Part shown: piece by piece, positions 1,321-21,150 of the stretch
Position numbering within the stretch: the first letter of the stretch is position 1
How the letters are laid out: every line of letters starts with the position of its first letter
From: a virus
Virus record (IMG/VR): IMGVR_UViG_3300017598_000745
Span: 1-21,150 of that record
Strand: one strand, 5' to 3'
DNA length: 21,150 nt
Notes under the pieces: model-generated
What the model was told of the DNA's origin: nothing
Databases searched by the model: none
What the model saw: only the letters and a program-made list of their open reading frames with translations
Made by a program: the position numbers and the translations under genes

Positions 1321-1800
1321 ATGGCCTATGTTGATACAGGTTCGGAAACAGCCGATGATACTGTTGTTTTGAGGGAATTAAAAGGCTCTCCGCTTAATAC
1401 TGATGAGTTTGATTCCAGCTTGGAGGTTATCGTAGATGCACTCAATGATTTGGATACCAGGATTACTGCTGCCGCTTCGTCCTTTGAGTTGCCGGAGACA
1501 ACGGAGACTATTGCCTCTGGTATATTAACCTTGACTGAATCCTATTCTCAGAATTGTGTTGCCGATACCGAAGGAGCCGCAGCTACCGACGAATTAACCC
1601 GGATTAGCGGGTTAGGTGCTGGAAATGTTATCCTTCTTCAATCAACTGCCGATGCAAGAGTTATTACCGTAGAACATGGGACATATTTAAGACTTACGGG
1701 TGGCAATGATTTCGTGCTTAACGATTCAAATGACTGTATCTTTTTCAGGTGTGACTCAAACGGAATTTGCACCGAAATTACGAGGTCGAGTAATGTATAA
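1321..1800 (+). CDS. Small tail-fibre-associated protein
   Basis: 159 residues. The only nearby Shine-Dalgarno-like sequence is AAGGA at 1304-1308, 12 bases upstream, which is a long spacing; coupling to the previous gene may help. The N-terminal third is acidic and probably helical (DEFDSSLEVIVDALNDLDTRI), as in fibre attachment segments. The C-terminal half (ARVITVEHGTYLRLTGGNDFVLNDSNDCIFF, quoted here only in part as TVEHGTYLRLTGG and FVLNDSND) is a beta-rich motif ending in EITRSSN that recurs in phage fibre and capsid-decoration proteins. It overlaps the next gene by eight bases. It is probably an adaptor between the tail and the long fibre encoded next; this is inferred from order and composition, not a precise match. 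Confidence 0.65.
   Translation: MAYVDTGSETADDTVVLRELKGSPLNTDEFDSSLEVIVDALNDLDTRITAAASSFELPETTETIASGILTLTESYSQNCVADTEGAAATDELTRISGLGAGNVILLQSTADARVITVEHGTYLRLTGGNDFVLNDSNDCIFFRCDSNGICTEITRSSNV
1782..1785 (+). promoter_or_regulatory. Ribosome binding site that sets the fibre start
   Basis: GAGG, seven bases before the ATG at 1793. It lies inside the preceding gene, eight bases before that gene's stop region, which implies coupled translation and supports the start that gives a signal peptide. Confidence 0.6.
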
Positions 1801-4800
1801 AAAACTCTTTTGGATAGTTCTATGTGTCTTGGGATTAATTGCCCCTCACGCATACGGGAGTGATGGCGATAATCTTATTGAACCACTTGATCTTACAAGC
1901 CAAGTCGGAACGTCTGTTCTTCCCGTAGCCAACGGGGGCACGGGGTTAAGTACACCATTGAGCAACGACAGGCTGATATGGTCTACGGCCGGCGGTATCG
2001 CGGAAACCGGGGCCACTTGGTCCGAATCTACCAATGATTTTTCTATTACCAAAGGCGGAACGACATTCGGAACCACCCTTTTTTCAAAGTCTACTGATGG
2101 AACAACTCAGTCCATTATCCGGAACACGGATTCAAGCCTTGCCAGTGAGACCTATCTCCTTGAGCTTCAACAGACTGCTAACGCCGATGCTCAGGGCGAT
2201 TTCATTAAATGTTCCGATGATTACGGTGGAACGCCTTTGACGGTTTTTAATGTTGAATATGATGGTAGGACAAGGATAGGAGACGTAACACAACTGGTTG
2301 CTCCTACTTGGTATGCTACGGCAGGGAAAGCAGATGAGGGTTTAATGTTTGAGGCATATGGGATAAGTTCAAGTGATGCCACGGTACTTCCTTTGATGAA
2401 TATTCAAAACGATTGGTCTTATAACCCCGCGTCATTGACATCTTATCTCGGTACAGGTTTATTTTATACAAAAAAAGCGGTTGACACAGGGAATAGTGAA
2501 GTTTCAAATGTTTACTTTTTAATGGATCAGGACGGTAACGGTCAAGCTTCTGCTATTAGTTTACACTCAAGGGTTTCTAAAAATACTTACGGCGGGGCTT
2601 ATGCTTCATGGTTTTCATCTCAAAGGATCAATACTGCATCGGATGGTCATGTCAATGTGTGCGTCGAAGTCAATTCCAGGGATTTGTCCAAAGACACAGG
2701 ATTCAAGGAGGATAAAGTTTCCCCTTTGTCTGCTGGTATATGGAATAGTCATAGTCCGTATACGGCTGATTTTGTAGAAAATGGCGATTTTACTACCGAT
2801 ACAGGCTGGACAAAAGGAACGGGGTGGACAATAAGCGGCGGGGATGCAAGTTGCGATGGTAGTCAAGTTGCTACAAGTAATTTAGCACAAGCAGAGGCCA
2901 CACATGACAATTACTGCTATATAATAACATTTACAGTCTCTAACTATAGCGCAGGATCTGTTACTCCGTATATAGCCACTGATGCAGGCAGGGCCGTTAG
3001 CGCAAATGGAACATATGTTCAATTAATTACTGCAACCGCTGATGGAACTACAGGGTATATTTTTGTTGCCAATAGTACATTTGTCGGTGAAATAGACGAT
3101 GTTTCAATAACATATTCAAATCAACCGCAGACCTTTGGTTATGCTTTAAATGGTAGAAGTGACGTTCATTCCGGTGTTTATAATGGACTGTGGTTTAACC
3201 ATACAGCTATTCAACAAAACGGTGTAGGAATAAACTTTACAAACACTTACGACACAGACATGGGGCCGTTACATAACATTAAATTCTACGGATATTACGG
3301 TGACTCATATGCCTCAACTGATATTGATATTGTTACTTTTGATGGTGTTGCAACCTGGGCAAATATTACATCGGACGTTGAAGCTGACGATTCAAGCTAT
3401 GCTAACAACTTTTTGACCGACAACAATGATGTTGTATTTATTGGGTCTACATATCTGTTTGATGCGATTAGATACGCAAAATTAGGGGCTTCCGATTATG
3501 CTGTGGGTGCTGGTCCTGTTATAATATATTACTATGATGGAATTGATTTTACTCAGGAGGTTGGAGGAATCGCAACAGAACGAGTAGCAGGACAAACAGA
3601 TGGAGTCGACAATGTTAAAGATACCGAAATAATAGAAAGGGTTATTGATGATGAAACTATGACAGGTATTGTATATACTGCTGTTGCTGATGGCGGTAAT
3701 ACTGGAGCTGCAACCTGTACCTCAAGCGGAACCCTCTCAACTGACTACGCGTTGGATTTTAAGATTGAAATAGACACTAATGGCACACCGGATACCTTTA
3801 AATGGTCACAGGATGGTGGGTTAACGTGGGTTTATACTAAGGTTGCCATAACTGCCGGGTTGCAAACGCTCGGTGATGGGGTGAAGATTACCTTTGATAG
3901 CACAACAACTGCACATTTAGGTGATATCTGGACTTTTAAAGCAGGTGATTGTTTCGCCCAAAACGGTACGATGAGATTTGCTATTCCTCAACAGTGGGCC
4001 ATTGGAGCCGATTCTTATAATGCTAATTTAGACTCTGATAAGTATTATATTGCCATTATGACTACCACAAGCCCTTCAACTGACCCTGACGCAGATTTGC
4101 TTGTCCCGTTTGATGGCGGTTACGGTGCCCATATTTACGCCGCTGATAGCAGTGTTGGACTTACTGTTAGGTCTGAGGCTGATGTGGTATTCCATGTTGG
4201 CAAGAACAGGGGCGGCCAGGTCTTCATAGGTGATAACAGCACTACTCTTTCATCAAGTGGATACTTATGGTTAGGGCCAGCCACAGGCGCTAATTTGTCT
4301 CTTGACACAAATGAGATCCAGGCCAGAAATAACGGGGTGGCCGTTGCATTATTGTTAAATGCTCATGGTGGGACTGTAGTTATTGGAGATCAAACTGCGG
4401 GTATTGATTTGTATGGTTCGTCGATTGATATAGGAGATGGAGTAGCGACGGCTGACTTATGGGTCGATTTCGATACAGGAGGCCAAGACGGAAGAATCAC
4501 TTGGGATGAAGACCCAGGGGAGTTTGATTTTGACGCTGACTTGCACGTTGGCGGAGATGTAAAGCTGGGAGATGCAAGTGCGATTTTAGATCACCATGCC
4601 AGCTACACACTGCTTCAGGTTGGAGATCAAGCTTCTATTTTTGGTCTTACGGCTGCGTCAGGCTCAGGTGATCTTAACATCGGCAACAATGCTTATTATG
4701 ATGAAACTACAGACAATAGATACGAATATATAAATACTGGCTATGCTACTCGGTATATTCAGACTGACAACTATCATCTATTTTCTACAGCTCCAAGTGG

Positions 4801-5566
4801 GACCACAAATGGTGCCATTACGTTTGTTAACCCTCTTATGATTCAAGCATCTACTGTTACAGTTGCCGGTGTGTTGGACGTTCACGATCAAGAAGATGGA
4901 GGGGCGTCAAGCGGGCCAATTATTAAGAAAACCTATCAGGCAGGGGAAACCTACTCAGGCACAGAAGCGGCTCTTCTCGTAAAGGCCTACGATAAAGACG
5001 CGACGGTCACCCATGGATCAGGGGAGCATGCGGGTTTGGCCCTGTTCTTCAAACCTCTTTCAAGGTCCGGCGCAGGTGGCGAAAATATGCTTATGACCCT
5101 GCACCAGCATTCAAGCGGGACACAGACCTTGACCGCAGGGCTTATGATGTACCCTAAAGCCGCTGATGCCGCATTCGCAGTCAGAGCGTCAACATTGTCC
5201 TACGGCCTTGATTTTGCCGACAGGTCTAATACCGTTATCACTACCGCCGATTTCAGGGGTCACGAAGGGGAGATTATCTTTAATAACCCGGACGGTAATT
5301 GGGATTTCGGGGATGCGAATATTATAATCCACAGTCCCACGCCTAACGGGAACCTCGTAGGTGGATTGATTTTAGGTAATGGTACAGCCGCGAGTGCTGC
5401 GGTTACGGATGGGATTCAGATTTATGCCGTTGATTGCTCAGACAGTAAATCAACACTTGGATTATACACAGAACAGGCGGTAGAGGCAGGGGCAATGACG
5501 CCCTCCCATAAGCTAAAGGTCCGTATAAATGGCGTGGAGTATTATATGTCACTTGACGCGGTTTAA
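1793..5566 (+). CDS. Long tail fibre / receptor-binding protein with N-terminal signal peptide
   Basis: 1257 residues. The frame can be extended to 1700, but 1793 is preferred: GAGG lies seven bases upstream, and the product then begins with a complete Sec-type signal peptide (Lys-Lys, a hydrophobic core LFWIVLCVLGLIA, a likely cut after HAYG at residue 22). Residues 42-51 carry the GGTG motif common near the start of phage fibres. Residues about 330-438 form a jelly-roll, carbohydrate-binding-like module opening with ENGDFTTDTGW. Residues about 620-720 are another phage bead module (SQDGGLTWVY, then LGDIWTFKAG). The rest is Gly/Asp/Ser/Thr-rich beta structure, and the end (HKLKVRINGVEYYMSL) is a common fibre terminus. 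No S74 chaperone is attached. The middle is visibly more A+T-rich than the ends. Host receptor binding is inferred. Confidence 0.8.
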   Translation: MYKKLFWIVLCVLGLIAPHAYGSDGDNLIEPLDLTSQVGTSVLPVANGGTGLSTPLSNDRLIWSTAGGIAETGATWSESTNDFSITKGGTTFGTTLFSKSTDGTTQSIIRNTDSSLASETYLLELQQTANADAQGDFIKCSDDYGGTPLTVFNVEYDGRTRIGDVTQLVAPTWYATAGKADEGLMFEAYGISSSDATVLPLMNIQNDWSYNPASLTSYLGTGLFYTKKAVDTGNSEVSNVYFLMDQDGNGQASAISLHSRVSKNTYGGAYASWFSSQRINTASDGHVNVCVEVNSRDLSKDTGFKEDKVSPLSAGIWNSHSPYTADFVENGDFTTDTGWTKGTGWTISGGDASCDGSQVATSNLAQAEATHDNYCYIITFTVSNYSAGSVTPYIATDAGRAVSANGTYVQLITATADGTTGYIFVANSTFVGEIDDVSITYSNQPQTFGYALNGRSDVHSGVYNGLWFNHTAIQQNGVGINFTNTYDTDMGPLHNIKFYGYYGDSYASTDIDIVTFDGVATWANITSDVEADDSSYANNFLTDNNDVVFIGSTYLFDAIRYAKLGASDYAVGAGPVIIYYYDGIDFTQEVGGIATERVAGQTDGVDNVKDTEIIERVIDDETMTGIVYTAVADGGNTGAATCTSSGTLSTDYALDFKIEIDTNGTPDTFKWSQDGGLTWVYTKVAITAGLQTLGDGVKITFDSTTTAHLGDIWTFKAGDCFAQNGTMRFAIPQQWAIGADSYNANLDSDKYYIAIMTTTSPSTDPDADLLVPFDGGYGAHIYAADSSVGLTVRSEADVVFHVGKNRGGQVFIGDNSTTLSSSGYLWLGPATGANLSLDTNEIQARNNGVAVALLLNAHGGTVVIGDQTAGIDLYGSSIDIGDGVATADLWVDFDTGGQDGRITWDEDPGEFDFDADLHVGGDVKLGDASAILDHHASYTLLQVGDQASIFGLTAASGSGDLNIGNNAYYDETTDNRYEYINTGYATRYIQTDNYHLFSTAPSGTTNGAITFVNPLMIQASTVTVAGVLDVHDQEDGGASSGPIIKKTYQAGETYSGTEAALLVKAYDKDATVTHGSGEHAGLALFFKPLSRSGAGGENMLMTLHQHSSGTQTLTAGLMMYPKAADAAFAVRASTLSYGLDFADRSNTVITTADFRGHEGEIIFNNPDGNWDFGDANIIIHSPTPNGNLVGGLILGNGTAASAAVTDGIQIYAVDCSDSKSTLGLYTEQAVEAGAMTPSHKLKVRINGVEYYMSLDAV

Positions 5567-13905: not shown

Positions 13906-16900
13906 ATGCCTATATTTCCGTCATTAGAGCCTGAATCAAAATCCCCGTCATACGACGAATTACGTAAGCAGTTGTCGGCACAGGGGTTAGACCTTGTCCC
14001 TGTCGAAGAACCCGCTGATAACGATGGGGTTTTCGAGAGTTTGGGGAAAGGGATAACCCACGGTACTTTAGGGTTGGGTCGTTCCATAGGGTCCGGCGTC
14101 CAATGGTTAGGAAACCGTCTTGGCAGTGAAACCATATCTGATTTAGGGGAAGACGCGGCGGGTTATTGGGGTAAACTTCAGGAAGGGTTTGAACCATCCA
14201 AAGACATTCAAGGAACCCTATGGGAAAAACCCGAACTGTTAGCAGATCTCTCCTGGTGGGTTTATAATATCGCTGATACGATCCCCTGGCTTATGGCATC
14301 TATCATTCCCGGTATCGGGGCGGCTAAGTATATCAAGATTGCCGGGAAAGCCGTTCAATTAACCCCACAGGCAATCGCCAGAATAGCCCACTACGGGGCC
14401 GCTTTAACGGGTGGCGCAACCGCTGGAAGCCTCGAAGGGGCGCAAACATATGAAGAGGTTTTAAAGCAGACCGGAGACGAGAAAAAAGCAGCAAGGGCCG
14501 GAGAAATGATGGCTGGTTTTGCTGCTGGCCTTAACGCTATCGGCGTCAGCAAAATTCTTGGAAAGGCTGGCTCTGGATTGGCAGGAAAGGCGAAGAAGGC
14601 TGGCATAGGTTTCCTCGCAGAGGGAACGACTGAGGCCCTTGAGGAACCCTCTGAAGAAATCGCAAAAGGAGTATCTCTTGGCTTGAGTGCAGGGCAGACA
14701 GCGGCCAACGCCGCAACAGCCCTTAGAGACAGGGGTTTAACGGTTTTCCCAATCGCTGGTGTTGCTGGTGCCGGTGCTTCGGTTATGACCAATATTACGG
14801 AACCGCCCAAACGCCAAAAGAAAACCAAATCTCCTGAAATGGACGCCCTCGTCAATCTCCTGAAACAAAAGGATCTCTCCCGCGAAGCCCTTGAGTCTAT
14901 GCGAAAAGACCTCAAGGACGACTCCCCCGCCGCACAAGAGATTGACAAGATCCTCTCTCTGTTGCCCGAGAAGGAAGGAAAGGGCGTTAAGGTAGAGCCT
15001 GAGAAGGAAGGGAAACCGATTGAGCTGACGGAAGAGATGGTAAAGGAGACGCCACATGCCGAAGAAATTAGAAAGAAAGCTGAAAAGCCAAGCGAAGAAA
15101 AAGGGGATGAAGGGGAAGAAGGCAGACGCTTACGTCTACGGGACGTTGAGAAAGACCGGGTGGAAGCCGAAAAAGAAGAAGAAATAAAGGAACCGCCGGA
15201 AGTTAAAGAACCGTGGGAGATGAGTCTTGTTGAATATGCCAAATCAAAACTTCCAAAAGAGCAAGCAGATCAGATAACGGATGAATCACAGGCTAAGTCA
15301 TTTCGAGGGCAATATATAAAAGATATGAAAGGGTGGATTGCTGCAAACAAAACCGTCCCCTCAGAAGTCCTAAAAGATTATCCCGACTTACAACCGCCAC
15401 CTGAAATCACTAAACCCATACCACCAGAAGCCGTCAAATCCACCACAAAGGAGGGACCCATTACATGGCTTGAAAAGCCTTGGGAATTACCTGAATCTGA
15501 AGCGACTGCATATATAAAGAATTTAGAAGAAGGCAAGAAGGGGGATTTGATAAAATTTGCAAAAACATGGGTTGATGAGAATGGTAATTGGCATATGCCA
15601 GGAGATACACTTGAGCAACAACTTAAAGGTCGAAGTGAAAAAGATATAGTTGAATTTATAAAATGGGCGCAATCGCAAAGTAGGCACGTAGAACGATTTG
15701 CAGCCTCTCCCGCTGCTACAGAATTACGAGTTCGAGGTGTTCCAGTAGACACCATTAAATGGCAACAAGAAAACCTAAGAGAAGCCGTCAAATCCACCAC
15801 AATCGACGAGGGGAAGAAGCCTACCACTGCTATGCCTAAGAAGGAGAAACCCTCTGAAGAGGCTAAAGTAGCCCCGGCAAAGGGTGAAGTAGGGGTTGTG
15901 GAGAGTGAGCTTGAACCTCTTACCCTTGAAGAGATAGAAGCAACAACTAAAGCTAATGCCATAGCAGAAACTAAGGATTTAATTGAACGTGAGTTGCGTT
16001 TGAACGGTGAAAGCCCCGTTGTGGAAGCCTTACGAAAAGGTCTTGATGTTTTAGAGAAACAAGCAAAACCGATATTACAACCTCCCCCCAAGGAAGCCAA
16101 GAAGGAGAAACCCTCTCCTGAGCCTGAAAAGCCTATTGTAGAGCCTGTTAAAGAGGCAAAGAAGCCTATCGTAACCGAATTTCGTCAACTCTTAACCGAC
16201 CTCAAAAAAGAACAAGGCGAAAAAGCCTATTTTGATGACCGCCTCAAAGGTCCAAGAGAACGGGAATCACAGGAAGTCTTAGACGCCTACCGAAAACAGC
16301 ATCCCAAGGGTCCGATTGTCCTTTACAAAGAAAAGGGTGACAGGGGTGTCATGATTACCCGTAGTTCAAAGAAGCCGGGTAAGTGGCAGATTACATCTTT
16401 TGACGAGCGCGGTTTTATAGGGGATACGTTAGCCGATACCGAAGAAGCGGCCATAGGCGAAGCATACCGTGAAGGAAACCGTATCCCTGACCCTGAACGT
16501 GCTGAAAAACAGATGGTATCTGAAGGGTTTCGTAAGGGGATTATAGAAACAGAGAAAGTGCAGGCTGAATGGCAAGAGAAGGCAAAGCAGTTTAAGGCAA
16601 AGAAGCCTATCACTGAAGGGGTCCGCAATAGAATATACAACAGGCTTAATTTGGCATTGCTGGCAGCAGAACGGTCTGGTATGGCGCCTGGTGTGGAACT
16701 TCCTGCAAGCATGGTTGAAGATTTAAGAAAAGATGCAAGGATAATGGCTGACTTAATAGCTGATGAATACGCCGAAAAGAAGGGGGCTGGAGCAATATGG
16801 CTATCTAAAAAATTAAAAGAAGATATATGGCTCATGGAACTTCAAGATAAGGCGATTGAGATCCAGAGACAAGAAAAACAACCTGGTATTAAAGTCGCCC

Positions 16901-19900
16901 CAACGAAGGAAGAGACAAAACCTTTATCCACCGAACTCCGCACCAAAACCGGCAAACCCTTCAAGACGGAAAAGTCGGCCAGGTTTCACCTTAAAACCTC
17001 TAAGAAATCAGAGTTTGACTATGACCTGATTAAAGAAGATAAGGGGTATATCTGGAGAGAGAAAGCCGAGAAACCAACCCCTTCCCAAAAGCTGCTCCTT
17101 GAAGATGAAAAAGCCGCTGATAGAAGGCGGGTGTTGGCAGAGGGAGCTAAGAACATCAGGATAGCCATAATGCACTCTGGCCGTCTAAGACGTTCGGACA
17201 AGAGCTTTAAGGGTGAGTTTAGGGATGCTTTAAAAGGTCCCGGGTCGTGGCCTCTCTGGATGTTCAGGAAAGATGGTTTATCCTTTGATGAGATGGTATC
17301 GGCCATGATTGAAGCCAAGTGGCTTCCAGAGGGTGCTACGGAACAAGACTTGATGGATGCCATAGAACAGAACATTACACAGAGGATATCCGGGGAAGGT
17401 ACACGAGAATATCTTAACAAGAAGATACAAGAAGAGATAGACTTATACAAGGATTTAGAACGTCAAGCGGGGGTGTCAAAAAATGACATTGCAAAAGCTG
17501 AAAGAGATGGCATACAAGCTGCAAATGAGGAAGCTAAGAAAAGAAAGGATAGCCGAGATCCAATCGATAAAGAAGGGTTTGATTGGGGAGCCGGGGAATG
17601 GACAAAAGAAGAACCGACCTTCAAGCTAACCCCTGAAGAACCTACCACACATGAGAAAGCCGCCCTTCTTGAAAAAGAAGGTGTGGTTAAACGTCCCAAG
17701 AAACAATCTTCCAAAAATGTATTCCCATCTGGTGAAGGGATAAAGACTGTCCCAGGCAAACAAAAGAAATTGTTTGGCCCTGAAAAGGGCGAGACTTTGG
17801 ATTTGTTTGACCAACCTACTACCCGCAAGTCTGTAGTTCCCACAGAAAAAGACTTAATTGCATATCATAATACCACTGAAACCGAGTTATTGTCAGCCTT
17901 AGAAAGTGGTGGTTTAGCCGTACCCTCCATCGCAATCACTCAAAAAGACATCCAATTTGACAAATACGGTGAGGTTACATTGGTAGGCAGAAAAGAATTG
18001 ATTGACCCTGCTGAATACGGGAATCGTGTTTTTGACTCAGATATATATTCCCCCCGCGTACCTGGTAAGGAATGGAATGTAAACAGGAAAGAGGGTAATG
18101 AGGTATTTGAACGCTTTGAGCCTGTCATGGATGAGGTAGATGAGTCTAAGTGGTTGTTTCAGAACGATTATGAAAAAGGGAAAGATTCATTTATTGACTA
18201 TGCTGATCGGTCTTCAGCCTTAAAGGTTGCTTTTTTAAGAGATCAGGGTGTCCCGGTTAGGATTCCGAGAAAACCAGTTTCGCTTCGGTTTGCGTTTTCT
18301 GACACAAAAGCGGTTTCGGACTACCTAAAGTCGCATGGAGGAAACATCCACAATATTGATTTCCAGAGTAAAGAGCATGAGGATTTGTCAAGAGTAGTTG
18401 AAGAAGGGATAAAAGAATATACTGAGAAACAATACCCTGGAAGGCGAAGCCTGGAAACAATATCCCAACGCTTAAAAGAAATGAACTTTGGAGAAGATGG
18501 ATTCCTTCATTACAATCTTTTAAGCCAACTTGGAGACGATGTTAAAACAGTCAAAGACAGACCAACAGAGGTAGATAAACGCAAATTAGAAAGCAGGGTT
18601 AAGGGAAAATTCACTAAAAAACTCTCAGCTCAATACTTAGATTGGGTCAATAAAATTGCAGATCCGATGTATGGTGATCCATACCTTAAACTTGGAAGAA
18701 AGAAAGTCCCTTACACCCTTGATAATATCGTTCAAGCGATTAAGAATGAGGGGTTGAAAGCCAAGGAAAAGACTATAGTTTTTGGTCCTGGTTCTGCTCG
18801 GGCTACTGCTGCTGAAGAAATTAGGTCAATTAAGGGGTTGCACAAACGAAAAGGCAGGCTGGTTTCAGGAGAAGAAGTATCTAAAGCAAAAGAATTGCAG
18901 GAAAAGGAACGAGAGGCTTTTACAGATCAGCTAATCAATAAATATAAATATAAGAATTGGCGCGGTGATGTTGACGTATGGAATGCTCTTGACGACGCCA
19001 TGAGATCTATAGGGAAGTTTCTATCTGGTAAAAATCGTTCTGTACAAAGGATGCAAAGCATTCTGAATCGACATGGATTTGAAAATGTAGGTGATACATT
19101 AGCCAGAAAAGGTATCCGTTTCGCTAACATACTTATTGATACCCCTACCCAGTATTTTGAAGCTAAACCCCGAAGGGCCGTTGATTTTAGTGAATTTACG
19201 GGAGCTGTTGTACCCACTACGGCAAGCAAGAAGCTAAAAGCGGCACTTACTAAAACAGGGTTGCAGGTCAGGACATATAAAAAATATGATGCAGAGAGTA
19301 GGCATAAAGCTGTGGCAGGGTTTCATAAGAAACCTGGGGTGTTATTTGCTACAGGAACAAAGACCCCCAAAGGCCTCCCATACAACACCGTCAGCGACAT
19401 CGTAGCCTCCATCTACTCCAAGCTCACCATGCCGGACGTTTCCGTTCGTGTTCTCCCTGATGTAGCCAACCTCGGACCTAAGAGAATTGACAGGTTCGGG
19501 ATTGACCCGGAAAAGCAGATGGTCAGGGGCGTATTCACCCAAGAAAACGGTAAGCCTGTTATCTACGTTTTCGCTAACGCCATGAACAGCAAGAAAGACG
19601 TGGTAAACGTGGCATTAGAAGAAGTTTTTCACTACGGCCTGTTTAAAGCATTGGGTCCCAAATATAATCTTGAACTAAGCCCAATCTACAAAAAGCATGA
19701 AAAGGCTATTAAGGACGCTCTTGGCGCTGATTACGATATTGACTTAAGGACTGTCGAAGGCCGCGCGGAGGCTGTAGATGAATGGCTTGTAAAATCCCTT
19801 GCTAAAGACCCTGATTCCGTCCCTGGCAGCGTGTGGTCTAAAATCATAGCTGCGGTTAAGAGGTTCCTGAGAAACGCAGGGGTGAAGGTCTCATACAGTG

Positions 19901-21150
19901 AGGGGGAGCTTAAACGCCTGATTGAAGATACGTTGACGAAAAAGCAACCGGATATTGGACAACTACCCACCAAAACTGCAAAAGGTGTCCCAATTAGATA
20001 TGTTCCGAAAAAGACTCTTGCTCCTGCATTTGGATTTTATGACCCAAAAGCGAATGAGATTTATGTGAGGGAAGATTTACCAAAGGCTGTAAAACGTTTC
20101 GTAACACAACATGAGATATATCATTCAACTGATGAAAACTTAAATAAGAAACTCACTTCTGAAATAAAAGCTAACTTCTTCCCTGGGATTAAAGACCCTA
20201 TTGGATTATTGAAAACAGTTGTAGCAAGCATGACACCTGAACGTTTGAAGTTTTACACAGGTGTTGGGACAGGCGACCCCACCCAAATCAAATCCATCTA
20301 CAATCAAGGCACATTCGACCCTCAGAACCCGGATATACGGTTCCAAGTCAGTGCCTACCAGGGGGGTCCCGCTGAGGTAGTAGGCGGGTATAAGGATGAG
20401 TTTATAGGTACGGGTGCAACGGGGGCGGCTTTCGGGTATGGGCATTATTTTTCGAGCTTGGAAGAAGTTGGAAGGGCGTATGCTCAAATAGCTGAAGACC
20501 GGCGCCAAGAGAAAATTAATGATGAAGTTGCCGCCAAATTAATTTCTAAACTAATCCCCTTGCGAGACAAAAAAACGATTACTGAAGATGCCTACCAGGA
20601 CGCTTTAGGCGATGCAGAAGTCCCTCATTTATGGGATCAACTAAAGAAATATCCATTTGACCTTGATGTTAATACTATTGTTGATTCTGTAGTTGATAAA
20701 TATAAAGGAAAACCGATTCGCCACCTCCATAAAGTTACACTCCACAAAGGCAAATCTCCGTCAGAATATAAGTGGTTGGATTGGGATAAGAAAGTCCCTG
20801 CAAAGGGTCTTGATAGGCTGATAGCTGAAGCAGAAAAGGAATCGAAAACTGATAAAGACATCCTTGAGCTTGTTCGAGAGCTTAATATGTCAAAGCAAAC
20901 TGGTGTCGATGGCGAAACCCTCTACAAGCGTATTTCCAGTGTCTTTGGTGAGATACGGAATAGGATAAATAAAGAAGAGGGCAGGATGTACTCGACATCT
21001 GGGCAGTCGTTTTATAATAGGGGTGCCTCCGCCTTCCTTCTCCGTGCAGGCATAGACGGTATCCGCTATCCTGCCGGTTCACTGTCCGGGATGAAAGATA
21101 AGGGTGCAAAGAATTATGTCGTATTTGACCCTAAAGCTATCACTATCGAG
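13906..21150 (+). CDS. Giant polyvalent phage protein (metallopeptidase-like and ADP-ribosyltransferase-like domains), open at window end
   Basis: 2415 codons without a stop, read through to the last base; AGGA lies six bases upstream of the ATG. In order: a Trp/Gly/Ala-rich hydrophobic region (about 111-310, including WWVYNIADTIPWLMASIIPG, then LAEGTTEALEEPSEE); charged Lys/Glu/Pro linkers; a GPIVLYKEKG...GKWQITSFDERGFIGDT module (about 800-855); a KTGKPFKTEKSARFHL module (about 1006-1050); a helical module (about 1070-1170); possible clamp-binding motifs (1286-1301); a large domain from about 1318 to 1790 with YHNTT, GGLAVPSIAI and YFEAKPRRAV; a zincin-like domain with EEVFH (1905-1909); a second with HEIYH (2069-2073); and an ADP-ribosyltransferase-like domain (about 2147-2415; IGTGATGAAFGYGHYF, AGIDGIRYP, NYVVFD). 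These are hallmarks of phage polyvalent proteins thought to be injected with DNA to act on the host. Activity is untested. Confidence 0.9.
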   Translation, partial: MPIFPSLEPESKSPSYDELRKQLSAQGLDLVPVEEPADNDGVFESLGKGITHGTLGLGRSIGSGVQWLGNRLGSETISDLGEDAAGYWGKLQEGFEPSKDIQGTLWEKPELLADLSWWVYNIADTIPWLMASIIPGIGAAKYIKIAGKAVQLTPQAIARIAHYGAALTGGATAGSLEGAQTYEEVLKQTGDEKKAARAGEMMAGFAAGLNAIGVSKILGKAGSGLAGKAKKAGIGFLAEGTTEALEEPSEEIAKGVSLGLSAGQTAANAATALRDRGLTVFPIAGVAGAGASVMTNITEPPKRQKKTKSPEMDALVNLLKQKDLSREALESMRKDLKDDSPAAQEIDKILSLLPEKEGKGVKVEPEKEGKPIELTEEMVKETPHAEEIRKKAEKPSEEKGDEGEEGRRLRLRDVEKDRVEAEKEEEIKEPPEVKEPWEMSLVEYAKSKLPKEQADQITDESQAKSFRGQYIKDMKGWIAANKTVPSEVLKDYPDLQPPPEITKPIPPEAVKSTTKEGPITWLEKPWELPESEATAYIKNLEEGKKGDLIKFAKTWVDENGNWHMPGDTLEQQLKGRSEKDIVEFIKWAQSQSRHVERFAASPAATELRVRGVPVDTIKWQQENLREAVKSTTIDEGKKPTTAMPKKEKPSEEAKVAPAKGEVGVVESELEPLTLEEIEATTKANAIAETKDLIERELRLNGESPVVEALRKGLDVLEKQAKPILQPPPKEAKKEKPSPEPEKPIVEPVKEAKKPIVTEFRQLLTDLKKEQGEKAYFDDRLKGPRERESQEVLDAYRKQHPKGPIVLYKEKGDRGVMITRSSKKPGKWQITSFDERGFIGDTLADTEEAAIGEAYREGNRIPDPERAEKQMVSEGFRKGIIETEKVQAEWQEKAKQFKAKKPITEGVRNRIYNRLNLALLAAERSGMAPGVELPASMVEDLRKDARIMADLIADEYAEKKGAGAIWLSKKLKEDIWLMELQDKAIEIQRQEKQPGIKVAPTKEETKPLSTELRTKTGKPFKTEKSARFHLKTSKKSEFDYDLIKEDKGYIWREKAEKPTPSQKLLLEDEKAADRRRVLAEGAKNIRIAIMHSGRLRRSDKSFKGEFRDALKGPGSWPLWMFRKDGLSFDEMVSAMIEAKWLPEGATEQDLMDAIEQNITQRISGEGTREYLNKKIQEEIDLYKDLERQAGVSKNDIAKAERDGIQAANEEAKKRKDSRDPIDKEGFDWGAGEWTKEEPTFKLTPEEPTTHEKAALLEKEGVVKRPKKQSSKNVFPSGEGIKTVPGKQKKLFGPEKGETLDLFDQPTTRKSVVPTEKDLIAYHNTTETELLSALESGGLAVPSIAITQKDIQFDKYGEVTLVGRKELIDPAEYGNRVFDSDIYSPRVPGKEWNVNRKEGNEVFERFEPVMDEVDESKWLFQNDYEKGKDSFIDYADRSSALKVAFLRDQGVPVRIPRKPVSLRFAFSDTKAVSDYLKSHGGNIHNIDFQSKEHEDLSRVVEEGIKEYTEKQYPGRRSLETISQRLKEMNFGEDGFLHYNLLSQLGDDVKTVKDRPTEVDKRKLESRVKGKFTKKLSAQYLDWVNKIADPMYGDPYLKLGRKKVPYTLDNIVQAIKNEGLKAKEKTIVFGPGSARATAAEEIRSIKGLHKRKGRLVSGEEVSKAKELQEKEREAFTDQLINKYKYKNWRGDVDVWNALDDAMRSIGKFLSGKNRSVQRMQSILNRHGFENVGDTLARKGIRFANILIDTPTQYFEAKPRRAVDFSEFTGAVVPTTASKKLKAALTKTGLQVRTYKKYDAESRHKAVAGFHKKPGVLFATGTKTPKGLPYNTVSDIVASIYSKLTMPDVSVRVLPDVANLGPKRIDRFGIDPEKQMVRGVFTQENGKPVIYVFANAMNSKKDVVNVALEEVFHYGLFKALGPKYNLELSPIYKKHEKAIKDALGADYDIDLRTVEGRAEAVDEWLVKSLAKDPDSVPGSVWSKIIAAVKRFLRNAGVKVSYSEGELKRLIEDTLTKKQPDIGQLPTKTAKGVPIRYVPKKTLAPAFGFYDPKANEIYVREDLPKAVKRFVTQHEIYHSTDENLNKKLTSEIKANFFPGIKDPIGLLKTVVASMTPERLKFYTGVGTGDPTQIKSIYNQGTFDPQNPDIRFQVSAYQGGPAEVVGGYKDEFIGTGATGAAFGYGHYFSSLEEVGRAYAQIAEDRRQEKINDEVAAKLISKLIPLRDKKTITEDAYQDALGDAEVPHLWDQLKKYPFDLDVNTIVDSVVDKYKGKPIRHLHKVTLHKGKSPSEYKWLDWDKKVPAKGLDRLIAEAEKESKTDKDILELVRELNMSKQTGVDGETLYKRISSVFGEIRNRINKEEGRMYSTSGQSFYNRGASAFLLRAGIDGIRYPAGSLSGMKDKGAKNYVVFDPKAITIE
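15426..15448 (+). repeat. Direct repeat in polyvalent gene linker, copy 1
   Basis: 23 bases identical to 15780-15802, encoding EAVKSTT. The two copies are 354 bases (118 codons) apart and frame one small Trp-rich module. They lie in linkers, as expected if a module was inserted or duplicated through short homology. Confidence 0.9.
15780..15802 (+). repeat. Direct repeat in polyvalent gene linker, copy 2
   Basis: Identical to 15426-15448. After it the sequence turns into a Lys/Pro/Glu-rich linker. Confidence 0.9.
15838..16116 (+). repeat. Second linker repeat pair, KKEKPS
   Basis: 18 identical bases at 15838-15855 and 16099-16116, encoding KKEKPS, 261 bases (87 codons) apart. They flank a helical segment (EEIEATTKANAIAETKDLIE) that stands alone between linkers. 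Confidence 0.85.
16154..16611 (+). repeat. Third linker repeat pair, AKKPI
   Basis: 17 identical bases at 16154-16170 and 16595-16611, encoding AKKPI in both copies, 441 bases (147 codons) apart. They bracket the module with GKWQITSFDERGF. Confidence 0.85.

What the first reader, a model, noticed from the sequence alone, without database searches (positions are those of the whole stretch)
19618..20124. Two metallopeptidase-like domains in tandem, the first with its first zinc ligand replaced
The first domain aligns in pattern with the HE..HxGL zincin of polyvalent proteins, but reads EEVFHYGL (residues 1905-1912), so the first His is Glu. The helix that would carry the third ligand is present (EGRAEAVDEWLVKSLA). 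About 160 residues later a second domain has an intact HEIYH (2069-2073). The first may have become a regulator or substrate-binding domain, while the second could process the giant chain.
Basis: partly seen in the sequence, partly recalled or inferred. Interest (0 to 1): 0.75.

Follow-up and report, generated by a model that had tools for sequence, protein, structure and literature searches.

The report
Phage metallopeptidase with rewired metal site
A giant phage protein carries two protein-cutting-type domains side by side; in the first, one of the usual metal-holding histidines is replaced by glutamate together with matching changes around the metal site, so it looks like a rebuilt metal site rather than a randomly broken enzyme, although no activity has been measured.

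Summary
In a 2415-residue, 3'-open ORF of a phage contig, EEVFHYGL (1905-1912) and HEIYH (2069-2073) lie where stated. Domain 1 (D1) is a zincin of the phage polyvalent-protein metallopeptidase family: AlphaFold pLDDT 85; best solved-structure neighbours are zincins; 62 aligned relatives keep the base Glu, second His and third-ligand Glu without exception. At the first-ligand position they have His (52) or Glu (10), nothing else. The ten Glu rows fall in two clades about 17% identical to each other. All ten also have Lys at third-ligand Glu+4 (2 of 52 His rows) and Asp at Glu-1 (4 of 52). Those are the two positions whose side chains hold the first and second His ligands in thermolysin and DPP III. 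So His-to-Glu comes with a matching second-shell change. I think D1 most likely keeps a Glu/His/Glu metal site with altered metal preference; a metal-free pseudo-site bridged by Glu1905-Lys1963 fits nearly as well. Domain 2 is a different, M78/ImmA-like insertion with a complete HExxH...E set, absent from the nearest relative. "Regulator" is not shown; random decay is unlikely. New variant of a known kind; no biochemistry exists.

The parts
13906..21150 (+). Giant polyvalent-type ORF, 2415 aa, cut by the contig end
   Evidence: downstream of virion structural genes
17836..18450 (+). PBECR5 nuclease-like domain, residues 1311-1515
   Evidence: Pfam PF18814 E 3e-27
19366..19953 (+). D1: zincin domain of the HEx(2,3)HxGL polyvalent family with Glu in the first ligand slot
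   Evidence: alignments; AlphaFold pLDDT 85.1, pTM 0.79; zincin neighbours
19618..19620 (+). Glu1905, first-ligand slot (His in 52 of 62 rows)
19621..19623 (+). Glu1906, general base, invariant in 62 of 62 rows
19630..19632 (+). His1909, second ligand, invariant in 62 of 62 rows
19777..19779 (+). Asp1958, second-shell slot of the second ligand (Glu1959-1); Asp in 10 of 10 EE rows, 4 of 52 HE rows
19780..19782 (+). Glu1959, third ligand, invariant in 62 of 62 rows
19792..19794 (+). Lys1963, second-shell slot of the first ligand (Glu1959+4); Lys in 10 of 10 EE rows, 2 of 52 HE rows
19954..20274 (+). D2: M78/ImmA-IrrE-like domain inserted between D1 and the ART-like domain
   Evidence: phrog_87 E 1.2e-7; BLASTP to an M78 phage protein E 3e-7; absent between D1 and ART in L002
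20110..20124 (+). HEIYH, intact zinc motif of D2
20161..20163 (+). Glu2086, candidate third ligand of D2 (SEIKAN, opposite EREAN of the M78 protein)
   Evidence: alignment A5
20275..20343 (+). Recurrent inter-domain linker DPTQIKS..N.GTFDP.NPDIRF
   Evidence: 7 loci including the window carry a version
20353..21150 (+). ADP-ribosyltransferase-like domain, cut by the contig end
   Evidence: E 3e-20 to the L002 domain, E 1e-4 to the L078 domain, which has a sub-threshold ART-PolyVal match; no Pfam ART match for the window domain itself

Best explanation
D1 is a gluzincin-type domain of the phage polyvalent-protein metallopeptidase family whose metal site has been rebuilt: Glu1905 takes the place of the first His ligand, Lys1963 (third-ligand Glu+4) takes the place of the group that normally holds that His, and Asp1958 keeps holding the second His. 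Shown: the alignment, the invariant residues and the co-occurring substitutions. Inferred: the site still binds a divalent ion through Glu1905, His1909 and Glu1959, more carboxylate-rich than usual and so shifted towards Mn(II)/Fe(II) or a broader choice, with Glu1906 still free as the general base, so D1 may still hydrolyse peptide bonds. D2 is a separate M78/ImmA-like metallopeptidase with a standard site, inserted between D1 and the ART-like domain in this lineage. Either could process the long chain or act on host proteins after entry; the data do not choose.
For: Fold and family. First slot is His or Glu only: 52/10 of 62 aligned rows; 44 His/8 Glu of 52 loci found with a pattern that left that residue free; among 80 listed hits of a second free-slot pattern, 6 family members had 5 His/1 Glu while the 74 non-family hits had I, P, V, G, R, L or A and never H or E. 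Glu1906, His1909 and Glu1959 invariant in 62 of 62. The only two columns with one residue in all 10 EE rows and under 10% of HE rows are 1963 and 1958, which are the +4 and -1 second-shell positions of thermolysin (Asp170, Asp165) and DPP III (Glu512, Glu507) in PMC3268031. Extended set: Lys in 10 of 10 Glu rows, 3 of 68 His rows. Only 10 of 165 columns are invariant in the EE rows and 6 are these site residues. His to Glu needs two nucleotide changes. Precedents: TldD H262A keeps wild-type Zn/Fe because a Glu carboxylate takes over; Volvox QEXXH protease prefers copper; EEXXH in ZIP8 is needed for Mn transport.
Against: No biochemistry. A Lys beside the site could replace the metal instead of supporting it. 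TldD H262A bound metal but was inactive; DPP III H450Y lost its zinc. Lenart et al. find first-His-to-Glu enriched among substituted zincins and call substituted ones inactive. The ten EE rows are two clades, one of them near-copies, so only two independent contrasts exist and the sign test cannot reach 0.05; a single origin of all EE rows is not rejected (AU p 0.457).
Confidence: 0.45

Rival explanations
1. D1 is a metal-free pseudo-zincin: a Glu1905-Lys1963 salt bridge, with Glu1959, has replaced the metal and holds the two helices together; the domain serves as a scaffold or substrate-binding part, while D2 does the cutting.
For: Lys in exactly the slot next to the first ligand in 10 of 10 EE rows; TldE is a natural metal-free partner of the HExxxH protease TldD; here D1 lies beside an intact zincin motif.
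Against: The general base Glu1906, His1909 and its acid partner Asp1958 need not be kept, yet are invariant in all EE rows. The L002 and L007 records have the EE domain without a PHROG 87 domain, so it does not need D2 as partner. His plus Lys occurs (L003, L020, L148).
Confidence: 0.35
2. D1 binds a metal through Glu/His/Glu only as a structural or sensing site, without peptidase activity.
For: TldD H262A: metal kept through a carboxylate, no activity.
Against: Glu1906, needed for catalysis in classical zincins, is invariant.
Confidence: 0.12
3. Random decay of a dispensable active site.
For: D2 could make D1 redundant; substituted zincins are common.
Against: Only His or Glu is seen in the slot; the other site residues are invariant and second-shell changes match.
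Confidence: 0.05
4. The motif is misaligned: the family is HExxxH and Leu1904 stands in the first slot.
For: Most relatives are HExxxH (51 of 68 motif hits) and LEEVFH fits LExxxH.
Against: Upstream block fits EE opposite HE in 54 of 54 relatives; L007 has EE with the longer spacing; HExxH-spaced relatives exist in MetMV and as HELFHYGL in L124.
Confidence: 0.03

Closest known systems
Zincin-like MPTase domains of polyvalent proteins (Iyer et al. 2017, PMC5512222; section 8 read whole, other passages)
   Same: Giant multidomain phage protein; fold; HExxH and HExxxH spacings; base Glu, second His, third Glu; more than one such domain in a chain is reported there; neighbours PBECR and ART.
   Different: First His is Glu with second-shell Lys; no EE form is mentioned in section 8 or found by term search of that paper.
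ImmA/IrrE Peptidase_M78 (PF06114), PHROG 87
   Same: D2: strands, HExxH and E.xAN layout, E 1.2e-7 to PHROG 87.
   Different: Embedded in a giant virion-type chain; Pfam finds only a sub-threshold DUF6782 hit, no M78.
TldD/TldE (PMC5810440; section 12 read whole)
   Same: HExxxH; a Glu carboxylate can stand in for the first His; an active and an inactive homologue work together.
   Different: Different fold and Cys third ligand; the first-His change there is a laboratory mutant.
Volvox VMP3 QEXXH metalloproteinase (via PMC7717551 passages; the original paper was not seen)
   Same: Natural first-His replacement with changed metal preference (Cu).
   Different: Gln not Glu; HxxGxxH-type third ligand.
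ZIP8/ZIP14 EEXXH transporters (PMC10457451, PMC5661630 passages)
   Same: Natural first His to Glu in an HEXXH motif, tied to Mn or broader metal choice.
   Different: Membrane transporters; relatedness not tested.
Peptidase M2 members with first His to Glu (PMC3650047 passages)
   Same: Same substitution in an HExxH peptidase family, reported as non-random.
   Different: Different family; not examined here for the second-shell change.

Membership tests
Polyvalent-protein zincin-like MPTase (D1) | Core fold: N-terminal helix, three strands, motif helix, third-ligand helix | tested here: met
   Model SS H6-17, E26-30, E55-60, E63-69, H76-90 (motif), H130-147 (Glu1959), pLDDT 85.1; zincin-like 2ejq Z 6.8 rmsd 3.4 over 79 and 3e11 Z 5.8 rmsd 3.5 over 79 top the list. 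Z under 8, so read with the family evidence.
Polyvalent-protein zincin-like MPTase (D1) | First zinc-ligand His | tested here: not met
   Glu1905
Polyvalent-protein zincin-like MPTase (D1) | General-base Glu, second His, third-ligand Glu | tested here: met
   Invariant in 62 of 62 rows; listed as invariant in the 40-row alignment A4
Polyvalent-protein zincin-like MPTase (D1) | Sequence homology to HE-type members | tested here: met
   tblastn to MetMV E 2e-5; the profile of A2, which includes the window row, re-finds it at E 9e-46 (not independent)
Polyvalent-protein zincin-like MPTase (D1) | Peptidase activity with a bound metal | not testable with these tools
   needs protein
Peptidase M78 / ImmA-IrrE (D2) | HExxH plus downstream Glu | tested here: met
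   HEIYH 2069-2073, Glu2086 opposite the Glu of M78 EREAN
Peptidase M78 / ImmA-IrrE (D2) | Profile match above the curated threshold | tested here: not met
   No PF06114 match; DUF6782 E 8e-4, 19.2 bits against cut-off 27; PHROG 87 E 3.4e-4 and 1.2e-7, no curated cut-off. I therefore call D2 M78-like, not M78.
Peptidase M78 / ImmA-IrrE (D2) | Fold | tested here: inconclusive
   Single-sequence model pLDDT 45.2
TldD-type pair (active plus dead homologue) | The two partners are homologous | tested here: inconclusive
   D1 and D2 match different sequence families; only an E=130 overlap of D2 with the D1 profile

The most novel reading that the evidence does not exclude
A second natural class of zincin metal site, EEx(2,3)H...DExxxK: a His-to-Glu ligand swap charge-compensated by a second-shell Lys, fixed in one or two lineages of phage giant proteins and giving an active peptidase that uses a metal other than zinc, perhaps so that it stays off in the virion and on (or the reverse) in the host cytoplasm.
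Probability: 0.3. Interest if true: 0.8.

Novelty: new variant of a known kind. Interest (0 to 1): 0.55.

Why it matters
HExxH is the textbook zinc-protease signature, and zincins lacking it are commonly written off as dead. Here the change at the first ligand is tied to the exact second-shell positions that biochemistry on thermolysin and DPP III points to, in natural sequences and in both HExxH and HExxxH spacings. That makes a clean, cheap test of whether a zincin can be rebuilt on a Glu/His/Glu site with a different metal, and gives a rule (look at third-ligand Glu+4) for telling remodelled from dead zincins in annotation. It also bears on how giant phage proteins are processed: about 36% of polyvalent proteins in the set of PMC5512222 were reported to carry such domains.

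Tried and rejected
Rejected: D1 and D2 as a recent duplicated pair (different families). Rejected: the LExxxH register. Disfavoured: decay. Led nowhere: D2 relatives in viral contigs (none confirmed out of 3 and 121 pattern hits), D2 in phages at E 0.01 (none) and at E 10 (14 weak records, of which I read four: an Anoxybacillus M78 protein, a Bordetella-phage internal protein D and two others); D2 structure (pLDDT 45); sequence search of solved structures for D2 and D1 (best E 0.092 and 0.034, not taken as homology); NCBIfam (none); D1 alone in Pfam (none). Foldseek against PDB had no hit at E 0.001; its first five rows are MATCAP chains. A profile search of 299 genomes of one phylum found 2 with a match. 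Absence in print of an EE polyvalent zincin rests only in an open-access library.

Rows dropped: from 69 distinct D1 rows seven were left out of the tree and counts (L041, L057, L089 short or off-family; L071, L066 divergent; L052, L059 near-copies), after leaving out exact or near duplicates L006, L009, L010, L012, L016, L025, L030, L045, L051, L062. L041 is an EE row without the third-ligand region; L057, L052, L059, L066, L071 are His rows. The extended table adds 16 His rows; L124 has two matching domains and was counted once.

Full report
What was checked. The window is a 21,150-base IMG/VR virus record. Its last ORF, 13906..21150 on the + strand, runs 2415 residues and is cut by the contig end. 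It follows virion structural genes (PHROG matches to head/packaging and tail proteins), a place where injected giant proteins are often found (my inference). EEVFHYGL, the EGRAEAVDEWLVKSLA helix and HEIYH are at the stated residues and bases.

What D1 is. Pfam has no model for it. Its near relatives are L002 (EEILHFGL, 50% identical) and L007 (TEEVIGHAGLR, 33%); an intact relative is the Methanosarcina virus MetMV protein AZF89913.1, with HELTHSGL at the same place. L007 led to phage and plasmid relatives mostly of the form HExxGHxGLR, i.e. the HEXXXH form that Iyer et al. described in polyvalent proteins. In 16 aligned rows only three columns are invariant: the base Glu, the second His and the third-ligand Glu. 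An AlphaFold model from 40 rows has pLDDT 85.1 and pTM 0.79. The motif lies in helix 76-90 and Glu1959 (model residue 139) in helix 130-147, preceded by three strands. VIA-align's top rows are the zincin-like 2ejq (Z 6.8, rmsd 3.4, 79 aligned) and 3e11 (Z 5.8, 3.5, 79), with a DPC-repair protease (6mdw, Z 5.0, 4.0, 100), jannalysin (4jix, Z 4.9, 5.9, 99) and IrrE (3dte, Z 3.7, 3.0, 60) lower; these are modest scores. Foldseek's first rows are MATCAP (E 3.8e-3), itself an HExxxH enzyme (PMC10499314 passages). In the viral library six hits reach E 0.001, several of them long phage proteins named as large polyvalent.

Is the Glu an accident? A DNA pattern that fixed E..GHYGLR but left the first-ligand residue free found 52 loci: 44 His, 8 Glu, no other letter. 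The eight Glu loci are one clade (MREEIIGHYGLR or close). A second free-slot pattern gave, among 80 listed hits, six family members (5 His, 1 Glu, the Glu being L007's own contig) and 74 unrelated ORFs whose residue at that place was I, P, V, G, R, L or A. So the restriction to His or Glu belongs to the family, not to the pattern. In 62 aligned rows the slot is His 52, Glu 10, while Glu1906, His1909 and Glu1959 are 62 of 62.

The second shell. I compared every column between the 10 EE and 52 HE rows. Only two columns carry one residue in all EE rows and under 10% of HE rows: 1963 (Lys 10 of 10 against 2 of 52) and 1958 (Asp 10 of 10 against 4 of 52). They are third-ligand Glu +4 and -1. In thermolysin Asp170 (+4 from Glu166) bonds the first ligand His142 and Asp165 (-1) the second, His146; in rat DPP III Glu512 (+4) and Glu507 (-1) do the same for His450 and His455, and replacing them raised zinc dissociation constants by factors of 10 to 10^5 (PMC3268031, part 1 of 3 read). 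Two named columns being the best two of 164 has a naive chance of 7.5e-5; that number ignores relatedness and was worked out after seeing the result. Residue 1963 in the HE rows is acidic in 21, His in 13, N/Q/S/T in 6, Lys/Arg in 6, other in 6 of 52. With 16 further His rows the table is Lys 10 of 10 for Glu and 3 of 68 for His. So Glu without Lys was not seen, while His with Lys was (L003, L020, L148), which would fit Lys coming first.

How many times. On a tree built without the motif columns, EE rows form two clades (window+L002+L007, 99/95; the L028 clade, 100/100), 0 of 200 bootstrap trees unite them, but the AU test does not reject one origin (p 0.457), and many branches are long. With two contrasts no formal test of the Glu-Lys link is possible. 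If there was one origin, the site signature has been kept down to about 17% identity between window and L028-clade rows; if two, it arose twice.

D2 and its surroundings. L002 goes from D1 to the ART-like domain with a 33-residue gap, and MetMV-type and L078/L083 proteins do likewise with 16-29. In the window about 130 residues lie between, holding D2 and a linker DPTQIKSIYNQGTFDPQNPDIRF of which versions recur in six other loci. D2 resembles ImmA-type M78 proteins (PHROG 87 E 1.2e-7; 33% over 58 residues to an Anoxybacillus phage M78 protein) and keeps H, E, H and a downstream Glu2086. I found no close relative of D2. D2 is most simply an insertion in this lineage; loss in L002 is not excluded. 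The L002 and L007 records have EE without a PHROG 87 domain, so EE does not depend on D2.

How it may work. Iyer et al. propose that these domains process the giant chains before packaging or after entry, or attack host proteins. For D1 I favour a kept metal site with Glu/His/Glu ligands. A deprotonated Glu cannot donate a hydrogen bond as His does, so an acceptor at +4 would be useless and a Lys donor useful; the base Glu1906 stays free because a second Glu fills the slot (inference). In TldD, removing the first His left normal metal content because the base Glu moved onto the metal, and activity was lost; having two Glu residues could avoid that cost. Metal choice moving away from zinc has precedents: copper for a QEXXH protease, manganese for EEXXH in ZIP8. 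The opposite reading, Lys1963 in place of the metal, explains the same covariation and I cannot exclude it; it explains less well why Glu1906, His1909 and Asp1958 are kept. Substituted zincins are generally listed as inactive, and first-His-to-Glu is a known enriched change, frequent in peptidase M2 (PMC3650047 passages); snake-venom zincins with other substitutions in the motif are reported inactive (PMC5086652 passages).

Verdict. The extra result, the second-shell swap, is what makes this worth a bench test. It belongs to the polyvalent zincin family by descent but fails one defining residue, so I file it as a new variant of a known kind, not as a plain member.

Noticed in passing
window 20275-20343: Versions of the linker DPTQIKS..N.GTFDP.NPDIRF recur in six other loci (L003, L004, L011, L069, L073, L074); it could be a processing or hinge site of giant phage proteins.
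   Followed up: partly
L124 ORF of 2742 aa, residues 2125 and 2378: Another giant protein carries two intact D1-family zincins in tandem, HELFHYGL (HExxH) and HEVLGHAGL (HExxxH), the first being the His form of the window's motif.
   Followed up: partly
window 20353 onward and L002: The ART-like domain begins AYQGG / AWQGG where L078, L083 and MetMV-type relatives have HGTPH: the His there is Gln in both EE proteins.
   Followed up: no
window 17836-18450: PBECR5 nuclease-like domain (E 3e-27) upstream of D1.
   Followed up: no
L003, L020, L148: His-type D1 domains with the second-shell Lys: possible intermediates between the two site types.
   Followed up: partly
window 1700-5566: ORF overlaps the gene before it and has an internal Met followed by a signal-peptide-like stretch (MYKKLFWIVLCVLGLIAPHAYGS), so the real start may lie downstream.
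   Followed up: no
HExxH-spaced rows: MetMV clade, Pseudomonas phage Rollin (L017), window and L002: The HExxH and HExxxH spacings change three times by parsimony on one family tree.
   Followed up: partly
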